NCBI RefSeq assembly: GCF_000455125.1
Contig: NZ_AUWR01000002.1
Span: 1-64,000, forward strand
DNA length: 64,000 nt
Reading direction: 5' to 3'
Source of the DNA: Mycobacterium sp. UM_WGJ
GTDB taxonomy: Bacteria > Actinomycetota > Actinomycetes > Mycobacteriales > Mycobacteriaceae
Position 1 is the stretch's first letter; the number at the start of each line of letters is the position of its first letter. Below the pieces are notes generated by a model. The model had not been told where the DNA came from and did not search any database. It saw only the letters and a list, made by a program, of their open reading frames with translations. This document shows, one piece after another, positions 7,919 to 12,281 of this stretch. The position numbers were made by a program, and so were the translations under genes.

Positions 7919-8515
7919 TCACTCGGTGTCTTGCGTCGGGGCCCGCAACGCCTTATGCAGCAACAGTCGGGTCTGTGCGATCGCGTCGTCAGGCGCGACG
8001 CCACCGCGGGCGATCAACGTTGCAGCGCCCAGAATCTGGACGCCGAAGTTGGTGGCCGCGACGATGGGCGAAATCCGCTGGTCGACTTCGCCGGCCAACT
8101 GGGCCCGGTGCACGGCGCCAGCGAGTACCTCCACCGACTGCGCCTCGGCCACCAACCGGCTGGGATCGGCGATCGGGGCAAGAATCAAAACCCGGTAACG
8201 ACTGGCGACTTCGATCGTCGGCCCGACCAACTCAATGAGGCTCGGCAACACCGGGGCAGACTTTGGCAACGAGTCATAGAGCTCGCGCATTTTCGTGACG
8301 GCGACTTGGTGAATGGCGACAACGAGTCGCTCACGGCTCGGGAAATGCCGGTAGAGGGTTCCGCGGTTGAGTTCGGCGGCGTCGGCGATCTCCTGCATGG
8401 ACGCGTTCGGATCTCCCGCGAGCACTTGGGTAGCCGCCTCGAGAATCCGCAACCGATTCTCGACTACGTCCGATCGCAGGCGGGCCGTATCGACCAACGA
8501 ACCCCCACGCGCCAT
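7919..8515 (-). CDS. TetR-family transcriptional regulator
   Basis: This 198-residue repressor-type protein has an N-terminal helix-turn-helix: RILEAATQVLA, then MQEIADAAELNRGTLYRHFPSRERLV at about 40-65. A divergent ligand-binding domain follows, with SLIELVGPTIEVASRYRVLILAP in its middle. It diverges from the zinc dehydrogenase gene at 8621. The 105-base gap carries a perfect palindrome, expected to be its operator. A second copy of the palindrome core lies before the PGRS-GH5 gene at 12223, which suggests a three-gene regulon. These genes sit between the Rv3013 and ligA homologs, which are neighbours in M. tuberculosis, so the block is an insertion or a loss in the other lineage. Confidence 0.93.
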   Translation of the reverse strand: MARGGSLVDTARLRSDVVENRLRILEAATQVLAGDPNASMQEIADAAELNRGTLYRHFPSRERLVVAIHQVAVTKMRELYDSLPKSAPVLPSLIELVGPTIEVASRYRVLILAPIADPSRLVAEAQSVEVLAGAVHRAQLAGEVDQRISPIVAATNFGVQILGAATLIARGGVAPDDAIAQTRLLLHKALRAPTQDTE

Positions 8516-8554
8516 GTTGACAGCCTAATCGACGCGTGCCACATTGCCAGCACC

Positions 8555-8579
8555 AAAATGCAACATATTGTTGCATTTT
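8555..8579. promoter_or_regulatory. Palindromic operator between TetR and dehydrogenase genes
   Basis: Perfect inverted repeat: AAAATGCAACA (8555-8565), three bases TAT, then TGTTGCATTTT (8569-8579). It lies 40 bases from the TetR start and 42 bases from the dehydrogenase start, so one bound dimer could control both. The core TGCAACA-N3-TGTTGCA occurs again at 12265-12281. Confidence 0.8.
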
Positions 8580-8620
8580 TTCTTGCGGGTTGGGCGCCGG
8601 GCAGATAGGCCAGATACAGC

Positions 8621-9766: not shown

Positions 9767-9802
9767 GTCGTGGCTTCACAGACCTGCGGTCACCGACGGT
9801 GA

Positions 9803-12223
9803 TCAACCCGCCGCGGCAGCCGGGGTCACGGTCACGCTGATGGTGGTGGCTCCGGCATCGGAGGCGATGACGAGCACCGGCGCGTTGGGCGCCGACACGA
9901 CATGGCCGCCGGTGACGCTGACGTCGTAGCCGTCGGGGTAGATGACTTCCGGCACGGAGATGTTGGACTGCGCACCGGCAGCGAAGACGCCCCCGCCGGC
10001 CATGTCGGTCGAGTAACTCAGCTGGAACGTGCCGTTGTCGAACGTCCAGGCAGTCGGGATTCCAGCCACCGCCTGCGGGTAGGGCTCGGCCAACACCGCC
10101 AGCTTCGCGGCGTCGATGTTGTCGCCGGTCGGCGGCAGGCTGGTGTCATACACGATCGACTCGGCCTCGCGTGATGTGGCGGTGGTGGTGATGTCGTTCT
10201 GGCCGGTGTAGACCCAGGTGGCCCAGCCGTATTGATGTCGCTCGGCGGCATCCAGTACCGCGGTGTGCGCCGCGAGGACGTTGCTGGCGCCGAACCCACC
10301 GATATGAGCCGGGATGTTGTAGGTGTCCGGGTAGGTCGTCGCGTTGTTGATCGCGATGTCGGCGAAGACGTTGCAGAAGAAGTCGACGCCGAACAGGTCG
10401 ACCGACGGGCAGAAGTGCTGGAACGAGTAGATGACCCTGTCGTCGTCCACCTCGCCCAGTCGGGTCTGAACACCCAAGTTGAAGAGCACATTCGGCTGTA
10501 CGAATATCGGCGTATCGGGGTCCACCGACCGGATGGCCGCGACCGACTGGTTGTAAAAGGGTGTCAGCTGCTGGGAGTCGAAGTAGGGGCTGCCGAACAG
10601 GCTTGAGAGCCAGTGCGATCCGGCATGCGGTTCGGCGACCACACCGAAGGCGGCCACCGCGGGGTTGTCTTTGAAGTAGTTCGCCACCACCTGCAGCATC
10701 TGCGCGTGGTGGGTCTCCAACCCGATTCCATCAGGCGCCGTGGCGTTGCCCCAGAACGCATCCCAGGCGTGGTTCTGCGCGGGGTTGACGAAGTAGCTCC
10801 AGGGGAAGCCCACGTCGATATTGGGCAGCCCGCCGGTCTGCACCGCCCACTCCGGCGCCCCCTCGCCTCCGAACGACGTGCTGTAGAGGTCTTGATGCAT
10901 GTAGATGTTGCTGGTGATGCCATGATTGGCCAGGGTCTGTACGGTCTGGGCGATGGAGGCCAGGTAGTCGTAGTCGAAGACCCCGGGCTCGGGCTCGACC
11001 GCGGCCCAGATCAAGCCCAGCTGAACGTTGTTGAATCCGTTAGCAGCTAGGAAGGCCGCGTCGTCGTCGCCGAATCCGTTGGCCGACAACTCGTATGGCG
11101 CAACCTTGTTCACGTGGTCGAAGCCGTGCAGGATCACGACGCGTCCGTCACTGTCGATCAACCAGGATCCCGCTGTCGAGAACCCACCGCTGCCACCGCC
11201 GCTCAGCGGCACACCGGTGCCGAATCGACCGACGTCGCCGTGGGCCCCGAGCAGCAGAGGGCTGCCGTTGCCGCCGGTGCCGCCCAGAGCGGGCAACCGG
11301 GTGGCCGCCCCGCCCACGCCACTATTACCGGCATCGCCCCCGTCACCGCCACTGCCGAACAGGCCGACGGCATTACCCCCGTCGCCACCGCGTCCCCCGT
11401 CACCTCCATCACCACCGGAACCGCCGGCACCACCGATGCCGAACAGCCAGCCACCTGCGCCGCCGGAGCCACCGACCCCGCCGATCTCTCCGTCACCGCC
11501 GCCGCCACCGGCACCGCCGACCCCCAGCAGCCAGCCGCCGGCCCCACCGGCACCACCGGCCGCACCCGCGCCCCCGGCGCCACCGGCCCCGCCGTCACCG
11601 AACCACCCCGCGCTCCCGCCCGCACCGCCGGCCACACCGTCCGCAGTGCTGGAGTAGCCGGCTCCACCGTCACCGAACAGCCACCCACCGGCCCCACCGT
11701 CAGGATTCTCAGCGGTGCCGTCCGCCCCATCACCGATGACGTAAGAGCCCAAGAGCTGATTGATCGCTCCGCCCACCTGCAGGCCCAGATCGCTGTTGAT
11801 CACATTGCCGACGCCGGTGTGGATCGGGGTGTAGATCCACTGATCGAACAAGGTGGTCAGACCGATGGGTGCGGCCAATGCCGGTTGCGCGCTGCTCAGT
11901 CCGTCAAGGTCGGCCCATACGGCTTCCTAGTGCGCCGGGTCGAAGAAGGCTTCCCACGCCGTGGAGTCGGTGAACGCCTCCCAGTCGAGGGTGCCGGTAG
12001 CCGCGTCCGCAAAGGGCGAGAACAGCTGCTCGAACACGTCCTCGATGTCGGCCTGAGCTGCGGGCGCCGAGGCGAGCGGGAGCATGCCGAAGCACGCAAA
12101 CGCCCCAATCGCGAGAGGGGTAGTGAGCATCCGCTTGCGGGTGTATCGCCCGATTCCACGCGAGCCGTGCGTGGCGGAGGACTGCCTGTCGGTGCCCCAG
12201 AAGGCGCTCTCACCAGTGGTCAT
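9803..12223 (-). pseudogene. Secreted PGRS protein with endoglycoceramidase-like GH5 domain, interrupted by an in-frame amber codon
   Basis: Two consecutive open frames lie in the same phase, separated only by TAG at 11927-11929 (codon 99). The first part has a long signal peptide (GRYTRKRMLTTPLAIGAFAC ... APAAQA) and a DIEDVFEQLF segment. The second continues with a 'FDQWIYTPIHTGVGN ... SDLGLQV' lead-in, GTAENPDGG and a Gly-rich PGRS tract (combined residues about 176-347). A GH5 barrel follows with GRVVILHGFDHVNK, LGLIWAAVEPEPG, MHQDLYS and FGVVAEPHAG, plus a C-terminal beta domain. These motifs match endoglycoceramidase-type GH5. The acid/base Glu (combined 531) is kept, but the nucleophile position reads Gly (IGGFGAS instead of EFGAS). 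The start at ATG 12223 has GGGGA five bases upstream. It is either a nonsense-inactivated gene or depends on readthrough. Confidence 0.8.
11183..11698 (-). repeat. PGRS-type Gly-Gly-X coding repeat
   Basis: This segment encodes about 172 residues of Gly-Gly-Ala/Asp/X repeats with periodic GGWLFG or GWLLGV motifs. It is the polymorphic GC-rich repeat sequence typical of mycobacterial PGRS proteins. It separates the N-terminal lead-in from the GH5 domain of the interrupted gene. Opposite-strand frames here are repeat artefacts. Confidence 0.9.
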
Positions 12224-12264
12224 CGTGTCCCCGCACTTCCCCAGCGGCCCCACCGAAAACGAAC

Positions 12265-12281
12265 TGCAACATGCTGTTGCA
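12265..12281. promoter_or_regulatory. Second copy of the TetR palindrome, upstream of the PGRS-GH5 gene
   Basis: TGCAACA (12265-12271), TGC, TGTTGCA (12275-12281): both half-sites are identical to the core of the palindrome at 8555-8579, with the same 3-base spacing. It lies 42-58 bases upstream of the ATG at 12223, where an operator overlapping a promoter would be expected. Confidence 0.7.

What the first reader, a model, noticed from the sequence alone, without database searches (positions are those of the whole stretch)
7919..12281. A compact TetR regulon: two identical palindromes link a zinc dehydrogenase and a secreted PGRS-GH5 enzyme
TGCAACA-N3-TGTTGCA occurs at 8559-8575, in the gap between the TetR and dehydrogenase genes, and again at 12265-12281, before the PGRS-GH5 gene. 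Both 7-base half-sites and the spacing are identical. The block sits between genes that are neighbours in M. tuberculosis (Rv3013, ligA). This suggests an acquired, self-regulated unit: an exported glycolipid- or glycan-cleaving enzyme plus an intracellular dehydrogenase for the released product. I know of no described regulon of this composition.
Basis: partly seen in the sequence, partly recalled or inferred. Interest (0 to 1): 0.75.

Follow-up and report, generated by a model that had tools for sequence, protein, structure and literature searches.

The report
TetR operon controlling a pseudo-glycosidase
Two identical DNA switches in an environmental mycobacterium mark a small, dedicated gene circuit whose exported "sugar-cutting" protein has lost the residues needed for cutting yet is conserved in related species, so it probably does another job.

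Summary
The two palindromes are exact and are the only exact copies in the 4.47-Mb genome. TetR orthologues occur in 6 of 297 genus genomes. Their blocks hold 11 sites with 0-1 mismatch, 8 different spacers and TTGACAG 40-44 nt upstream in 11 of 11. The 23-bp consensus built from these 11 has no further copy in the 6 carriers and none in 10 chosen non-carriers. This looks like a dedicated TetR regulon.

The interpretation needs three corrections. (1) The window holds a reduced copy: 4 relatives have a Baeyer-Villiger-type monooxygenase gene between TetR and the dehydrogenase. (2) The PGRS-GH5 frame here has an in-frame TAG. (3) The GH5-like protein is probably not a glycosidase: 8 of 8 block copies have Gly for the nucleophile Glu and also lose active-site Arg, Asn, His and Tyr, while 43 of 44 paralogues examined keep all five. 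The copies are under purifying selection (dN/dS 0.12-0.31).

Best reading: a TetR repressor jointly controls an exported PGRS pseudo-glycosidase (probably a glycan or glycolipid binder) and, in most carriers, intracellular oxidoreductases. Ligand and substrate are unknown.

The parts
7919..8515 (-). TetR-family regulator, 198 aa, intact
   Evidence: TetR_N 43.7 bits; orthologues at 74-90% identity in 5 of the other 296 genomes searched
8556..8578 (.). operator 1, AAATGCAACATATTGTTGCATTT, between the TetR and dehydrogenase genes
8517..8523 (+). TTGACAG element starting 42 nt upstream of operator 1 (putative -35 of the rightward promoter)
   Evidence: 11 of 11 block sites have TTGACAG 40-44 nt upstream; 5 copies in all on both strands of the 64-kb window
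8579..8620 (.). place where four relatives carry a Baeyer-Villiger-type monooxygenase gene that is absent here
   Evidence: TetR-to-dehydrogenase gap 105 bp here against 1,750-1,793 bp in L049-L052; best match in the own genome is a 58% paralogue on contig C65
8621..9766 (+). zinc-binding alcohol dehydrogenase-like protein, 381 aa, intact
   Evidence: PF08240 and PF00107 above cut-off; 90% identical to the G174 block copy
9803..11926 (-). PGRS repeats, GH5-like domain and GH5 C-terminal domain, downstream of the in-frame stop
   Evidence: PF21526, PF00150, PF18564; endoglycoceramidase-type PDB relatives
10295..10297 (-). codon at the GH5 catalytic nucleophile position: Gly where relatives have Glu (residue 297 of window:9806-11185:-)
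   Evidence: aligned to the E of 2osw and 5ccu, which is S in entries 2osx and 5j14; Gly in 8 of 8 block copies and in L130, Glu in the other 43 of 44 paralogues
10631..10633 (-). codon for the retained acid/base Glu (residue 185); the residue before it is Ala where paralogues have Asn
11927..11929 (-). in-frame TAG that separates the export-signal-like part from the PGRS-GH5 part in this genome
   Evidence: sequence and ORF list; the 7 copies in the five other carriers have long open frames
11930..12223 (-). N-terminal, signal-peptide-like piece (by eye) of the PGRS-GH5 gene
   Evidence: matches the N-terminal ends in L049-L053 at 45-68%; no Pfam family, so no PE domain detected
12262..12284 (.). 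operator 2, AACTGCAACATGCTGTTGCACTT, upstream of the PGRS-GH5 gene
12316..12322 (-). TTGACAG element starting 41 nt upstream of operator 2

Best explanation
The block is a dedicated TetR regulon of Mycolicibacter-type mycobacteria. The TetR protein binds a 23-bp palindrome just downstream of a TTGACAG-type promoter element and represses two transcripts. One encodes an exported PGRS protein with an endoglycoceramidase-like GH5 domain that has lost its nucleophile. The other encodes, in four carriers, an intracellular monooxygenase-dehydrogenase pair, and in the window only the dehydrogenase. TetR probably also represses itself from the shared operator. When an unknown inducer, most likely a hydrophobic alcohol or ketone or a glycolipid-derived molecule, binds TetR, the cell exports the GH5-like protein, which captures rather than cleaves a glycan or glycolipid, and makes enzymes that oxidise the inducer. 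Shown by sequence: the sites, their restriction to the block, their conservation, the shared layout with TTGACAG, the loss of catalytic residues, and purifying selection. Inferred: TetR binding, repression and autoregulation, export, the binding role, the inducer and the pathway. In the window's genome the unit is reduced: no monooxygenase gene, and a stop inside the GH5 frame.
For: Operator: 2 of 2 exact genome-wide sites are in the block. 11 sites with 0-1 mismatch lie in the blocks of the 6 TetR carriers. The 23-bp consensus made from them finds these 11 and nothing else in the 6 carriers, and nothing in 10 non-carriers chosen from 291. The 11 sites have 8 spacers and invariant columns AA.TGC.ACA...TGTTGCA.TT. 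TTGACAG lies at 40-44 nt in 11 of 11. The 60 nt upstream of the two sites resemble each other in 4 of 5 genomes (28-32 matches, mean of single-base shuffles about 18; 0-1 of 2000 shuffles as high). In G022 one site lies between divergent TetR and GH5-like genes, and its best dehydrogenase and monooxygenase matches are 57-58% and elsewhere. GH5 state in 8 of 8 block copies: nucleophile Glu to Gly, Arg to Gln, Asn to Ala, His to Gln (7) or Asp (1), Tyr to Phe; acid/base Glu, His97 and Trp324 kept; 43 of 44 paralogues keep all eight. Block copies are one side of a branch (SH-aLRT 100, quick tree); dN/dS 0.12-0.31 in 28 of 28 pairs. Monooxygenase: fingerprint FxGxxxHxxxW[PD] in L050, L051 and L052; best PDB matches are cyclohexanone monooxygenases.
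Against: No binding, expression or activity data exist here. The 23-bp pattern was derived from the 11 sites, so finding them is by construction; only the absence of further copies is independent. The acid/base Glu is invariant in the GH5 clade, which a pure binder would not need, and a new Asp at residue 23 (Asn in 43 paralogues) could mean altered chemistry rather than none. The structure prediction failed (mean pLDDT 48.7), so the pocket is untested. Export is inferred from an N-terminal end judged by eye and only 45-68% conserved. The sigma-70 scan did not report the TTGACAG promoters; it reported another weak one overlapping site 1, and a terminator-like score at site 2. In G181 the two upstream regions are no more alike than shuffles (19 matches, 754 of 2000 as high). 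The G181 monooxygenase did not match the fingerprint; by eye its last position is N. One exact 17-mer occurs at a LysR-type gene in each of 13 other genomes.
Confidence: 0.68

Rival explanations
1. The GH5-like protein is still an enzyme with altered chemistry: it kept the acid/base Glu and gained an Asp, and acts on activated donors (a natural counterpart of engineered glycosynthases) or by another mechanism.
For: Acid/base Glu185, His97 and Trp324 are kept, and Asp23 is shared, in the 8 block copies and L130. Endoglycoceramidase II with Ala, Ser or Gly at the nucleophile cannot hydrolyse but synthesises glycosphingolipids from alpha-fluorides (PMC4030847, passage read).
Against: Arg, Asn, His and Tyr of the active site are lost as well. 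No natural donor is evident. Retained residues may serve binding or folding.
Confidence: 0.12
2. The GH5-like gene is a decaying pseudogene family and the regulon is being lost.
For: In-frame TAG and missing monooxygenase gene in the window's genome; no dehydrogenase or monooxygenase in the G022 block; block absent in 9 relatives.
Against: dN/dS 0.12-0.31 in 28 of 28 pairs. The 7 copies of the other carriers have long open frames. Two carriers (G226, G073) hold two copies. The catalytic losses are shared by the clade and L130, while 277 of 460 columns are invariant among the 8 copies. Decay remains likely for the window's own copy.
Confidence: 0.1
3. One reading: an exported glycan- or glycolipid-cleaving GH5 enzyme releases a product that the dehydrogenase uses.
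For: GH5 and endoglycoceramidase-type homology; shared operator with an oxidoreductase gene.
Against: Nucleophile and four further active-site residues lost in 8 of 8 block copies; the window copy has a stop; the G022 block lacks the dehydrogenase.
Confidence: 0.05
4. The palindromes are transcription terminators or RNA hairpins, not operators.
For: The site at 12281-12265 scores as terminator-like and begins 57 nt after the ligA stop codon (56 bases between).
Against: Site 1 lies between divergent genes. 10 non-carriers lack the 23-bp element altogether. In 4 of 11 sites one arm changes A to G without the matching change in the other arm.
Confidence: 0.04

Closest known systems
GH5 endoglycoceramidases (endoglycoceramidase II, 2osw; putative secreted endoglycosylceramidase, 5ccu)
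   Same: PF00150 and PF18564 domains; E 1.3e-36 and 7e-40; acid/base Glu kept.
   Different: Nucleophile Glu is Gly; Arg, Asn, His and Tyr also lost; PGRS repeats added; far below the NCBIfam equivalog cut-off (214 of 700 bits).
Pseudo-glycosidases in general (heparanase 2; chitinase-like lectins, recalled)
   Same: A glycosidase fold kept by selection after loss of catalytic residues.
   Different: Bacterial, with PGRS repeats, and under its own TetR operator. Heparanase 2 seen in a search listing with the start of the abstract only (PMC12406646).
EthR-EthA and similar mycobacterial TetR-monooxygenase pairs (recalled, not compared here)
   Same: TetR gene divergent from a Baeyer-Villiger-type monooxygenase gene in four carriers.
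   Different: A second operator lies before an exported GH5-like gene; in one carrier only that gene is left in the block.
GH5 paralogues of the same genomes and genus
   Same: Homologous domain: 66 of 297 genomes, carriers included, have a match at E<=1e-60. PGRS presence was tested by Pfam in L130 only.
   Different: 43 of 44 examined keep all eight canonical active-site residues.

Membership tests
TetR-family regulator | N-terminal TetR helix-turn-helix domain | tested here: met
   PF00440 43.7 bits against cut-off 24
TetR-family regulator | conserved palindrome beside its own gene | tested here: met
   site next to tetR in 6 of 6 carriers, 0-1 mismatch
TetR-family regulator | protein binds the palindrome | not testable with these tools
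   needs a DNA-binding assay
GH5 glycoside hydrolase | GH5 domain homology | tested here: met
   PF00150 47.2 bits against 23.5; PF18564 50.1 against 22
GH5 glycoside hydrolase | catalytic acid/base Glu | tested here: met
   E185 in 8 of 8 block copies
GH5 glycoside hydrolase | catalytic nucleophile Glu | tested here: not met
   Gly in 8 of 8
GH5 glycoside hydrolase | conserved Arg, Asn, His and Tyr of the active site (list from PMC3059134, a GH5 mannanase paper, one passage read) | tested here: not met
   Gln, Ala, Gln/Asp, Phe
GH5 glycoside hydrolase | folded active-site pocket | tested here: inconclusive
   prediction with mean pLDDT 48.7
Endoglycoceramidase I equivalog (NF051847) | score above curated cut-off | tested here: not met
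   214.3 bits against 700
PE_PGRS protein | PGRS repeats | tested here: met
   PF21526
PE_PGRS protein | N-terminal PE domain | tested here: not met
   none in the window's N piece or in the two block proteins tested whole, L049 and L053
Type I Baeyer-Villiger monooxygenase (relatives only) | FxGxxxHxxxW[PD] fingerprint (definition recalled) | tested here: met
   found in 3 of 4: L050, L051, L052; not in L049, where by eye the last position is N
Zinc alcohol dehydrogenase | ADH_N and ADH_zinc_N domains | tested here: met
   the substrate-specific NCBIfam models listed are all below cut-off

The most novel reading that the evidence does not exclude
The block encodes a naturally evolved counterpart of an engineered glycosynthase: an exported endoglycoceramidase-like protein that lost its nucleophile once, keeps its acid/base and a new carboxylate, and builds or transfers glycolipids at the mycobacterial surface in response to a TetR-sensed lipid.
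Probability: 0.08. Interest if true: 0.88.

Novelty: new variant of a known kind. Interest (0 to 1): 0.58.

Why it matters
Few mycobacterial PGRS proteins have an assigned function (general knowledge). Here one PGRS clade comes with a regulator, an operator, partner enzymes and a traceable change of function: catalytic residues lost before the clade diverged, and the protein kept by selection since. Finding what releases the TetR would give a testable route to the ligand of an exported PGRS protein. It also shows that GH5 annotations in these genomes should not be read as hydrolases without a look at the active site.

Tried and rejected
Exact motif in other species: 17 of 297 genus genomes have it. 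Four are carriers (G000, G174, G181, G226; the sites of G073 and G022 have one mismatch). The other 13 have one copy each, 12 of them with spacer CCC/GGG, and 13 of 13 lie at the start of a LysR-type gene with no block gene in the 3-kb locus. I read this as an unrelated use of the same half-sites.

The 1-mismatch site in the own genome is inside a ClpC-type gene. Relaxed matching at 3 mismatches is uninformative. TetR on plasmids: no match at E<=1e-20. AlphaFold of the GH5 domain with five rows gave mean pLDDT 48.7 and was not searched further. Neighbourhoods of a few next-nearest dehydrogenase and monooxygenase relatives (4 fetched) suggested no shared pathway by eye. The nearest GH5 paralogue, L130 (62%), also lacks the nucleophile but has no site at 3 or fewer mismatches.

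Literature, full-text searches: endoglycoceramidase with mycobacteri and nucleophile (3 papers); Mycolicibacter with PGRS (15); glycoside hydrolase pseudoenzyme terms (1); Baeyer-Villiger monooxygenase with TetR, dehydrogenase, mycobacteri and operator (0); PGRS with glycosyl hydrolase family 5 (0); GH5 loss terms (2); GH5 conserved residues (4); GH5 pseudoenzyme (5); motif halves (479, 10 listed, uninformative); species and enzyme terms (74, 15 listed). In the listings I saw no description of this regulon or of the nucleophile-less clade; I read passages of three papers only (PMC6151457, PMC4030847, PMC3059134). Papers of most subscription journals are not held.
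Full report
What is there. Both palindromes are exact at the stated places. They are the only exact copies in the whole 4.47-Mb genome, with no hit for the reversed control and about 0.003 expected from base composition. With 3 mismatches allowed there is no enrichment (141 places, control 241). The GH5 frame, however, contains an in-frame TAG at 11927-11929.

Who has it. Of 297 genus genomes, 6 have a TetR of 74% identity or more to the window's: the window's own G000, and G181, G174, G226, G073 and G022. 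The next best E-value drops from 4e-81 to 5e-14, and the further matches that were listed are at or below 47% identity (the match list is cut, and ten candidates per genome were scored). In the six genomes the TetR gene lies between the Rv3013-like gene and ligA. I looked at 10 of the 291 non-carriers, chosen because they hold GH5 relatives: in 9 the two flank genes are neighbours, and in the tenth (G210) the contig ends too soon. On a tree of flank proteins carriers and non-carriers are mixed in a poorly resolved clade; the best tree needs 3 changes of presence, but the well-supported branches force only 1, so neither a single origin nor repeated loss is settled.

The operators. In the block of each carrier the site recurs with 0 (7 sites) or 1 (4 sites) mismatch: two sites in five genomes, one in G022. 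The eleven sites, read in the direction of the controlled gene, share AA.TGC[AG]ACA...TGTTGCA.TT and have eight different spacers. A search with the consensus made from these sites, AANTGCRACANNNTGTYGCANTT, found 2, 2, 2, 2, 2 and 1 copies in the six carriers, the same 11 places, and none in the 10 non-carriers; the consensus fits the eleven by construction, and the news is that there are no others. TTGACAG lies 40-44 nt upstream in 11 of 11, pointing to the dehydrogenase or monooxygenase on one side and to the GH5-like gene on the other; the 64-kb window holds 5 copies of that heptamer in all. In 4 of 5 genomes the 60 nt upstream of the two sites resemble each other beyond single-base shuffles; in G181 they do not. 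Two copies of one promoter-operator cassette is the simplest reading. The sigma-70 scan did not score these promoters, named a weak one overlapping site 1, and flagged site 2 as terminator-like. A terminator does not explain site 1, between divergent genes, nor the lack of the element in non-carriers.

Same half-sites elsewhere. 13 genomes without this TetR hold one exact copy each. 13 of 13 lie at the start of a LysR-type gene, and none has a block gene in the 3-kb locus.

The missing gene. In G181, G174, G226 and G073 the gap between TetR and the dehydrogenase is 1,750-1,793 bp and holds an intact flavin monooxygenase gene. The other three copies are 81-84% identical to that of G174; the next best among the 297 genomes is 61-63% (relatives of this family at E<=1e-120 are common, in 282 of 297). 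Its best PDB matches are cyclohexanone monooxygenases. The Baeyer-Villiger fingerprint (definition recalled) is found in L050, L051 and L052 and not in L049, where by eye the last position is N. In the window the gap is 105 bp, and the best match of this protein in the own genome is a 58% paralogue on another contig. The window therefore shows a reduced form. G022 differs: TetR and the GH5-like gene are divergent with one operator between them, and its best dehydrogenase and monooxygenase matches are 57-58% and lie elsewhere. Across the six carriers the GH5-like gene is present in 6 (interrupted in the window), the dehydrogenase in 5, the monooxygenase in 4. Which way the genes were gained or lost is not known.

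The GH5-like protein has lost its catalytic machinery. Its nearest solved relatives by sequence are endoglycoceramidases. Where 2osw and 5ccu have Glu, and entries 2osx and 5j14 Ser, the window protein has Gly; that this Glu is the nucleophile is established knowledge of the family. In 8 of 8 block copies (two each in G226 and G073) the canonical GH5 residues read: Arg to Gln, His kept, Asn to Ala, acid/base Glu kept, His to Gln (7) or Asp (1), Tyr to Phe, nucleophile Glu to Gly, Trp kept; in addition residue 95 Asp to Tyr and residue 23 Asn to Asp (list of eight residues from PMC3059134, a GH5 mannanase paper, one passage read). I compared 44 paralogues taken from the longer list: 43 keep all eight, and the one exception, L130 in G022, groups with the block copies (SH-aLRT 99 for the nine, 100 for the eight; quick tree, midpoint root). 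This fits a single loss. Pairwise dN/dS of the eight copies is 0.12-0.31 in 28 of 28 pairs, and the 7 copies of the other carriers have long open frames, so the altered protein has been kept by selection. The window's own copy, with its stop, may have been lost recently; a sequencing error is not excluded.

How it most likely works. Inference: TetR sits on the operator just downstream of the promoter element and blocks the GH5-like transcript and the oxidoreductase transcript, probably with its own. A small hydrophobic ligand releases it. The GH5-like protein, with PGRS repeats, no PE domain detected and a signal-like N-terminal end (by eye), binds a glycan or glycolipid outside the cell. The dehydrogenase and monooxygenase turn an alcohol into a ketone and then an ester or lactone inside, as in known cyclic-alcohol pathways (recalled). 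Which molecule, and whether the two arms meet in one pathway, is unknown.

What remains open. The retained acid/base Glu and the new Asp23 leave room for altered catalysis. An endoglycoceramidase with Ala, Ser or Gly at this very position works as a glycosynthase on alpha-fluorides but cannot hydrolyse (PMC4030847, passage read). The structure prediction was too poor to judge the pocket.

Changes made on checking: sites with an uncompensated arm change are 4 of 11; the flank-tree result now states that supported branches force only 1 change; PGRS in paralogues is claimed for L130 only.

Noticed in passing
L130:819-3374 (G022:C1:2353349-2358716): A further nucleophile-less PGRS-GH5 gene outside the block, grouping with the block clade, without the operator; a gene that looks TetR-like by eye lies convergent to it (3385-4089, -).
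   Followed up: partly
L033-L036, L039, L040, L042-L048, position 1501-1517: TGCAACANNNTGTTGCA, 12 of 13 with spacer CCC/GGG, at the start of a LysR-type gene in 13 genomes; a possible LysR autoregulatory site.
   Followed up: partly
L051 and L052: Tandem second copy of the block GH5-like gene in G226 and G073; no site before the inner copy at 3 or fewer mismatches.
   Followed up: partly
66 of 297 genomes: GH5 relatives with intact active sites form an expanded family; 11 of the 66 genomes reach the five matches that the search scored per genome.
   Followed up: no
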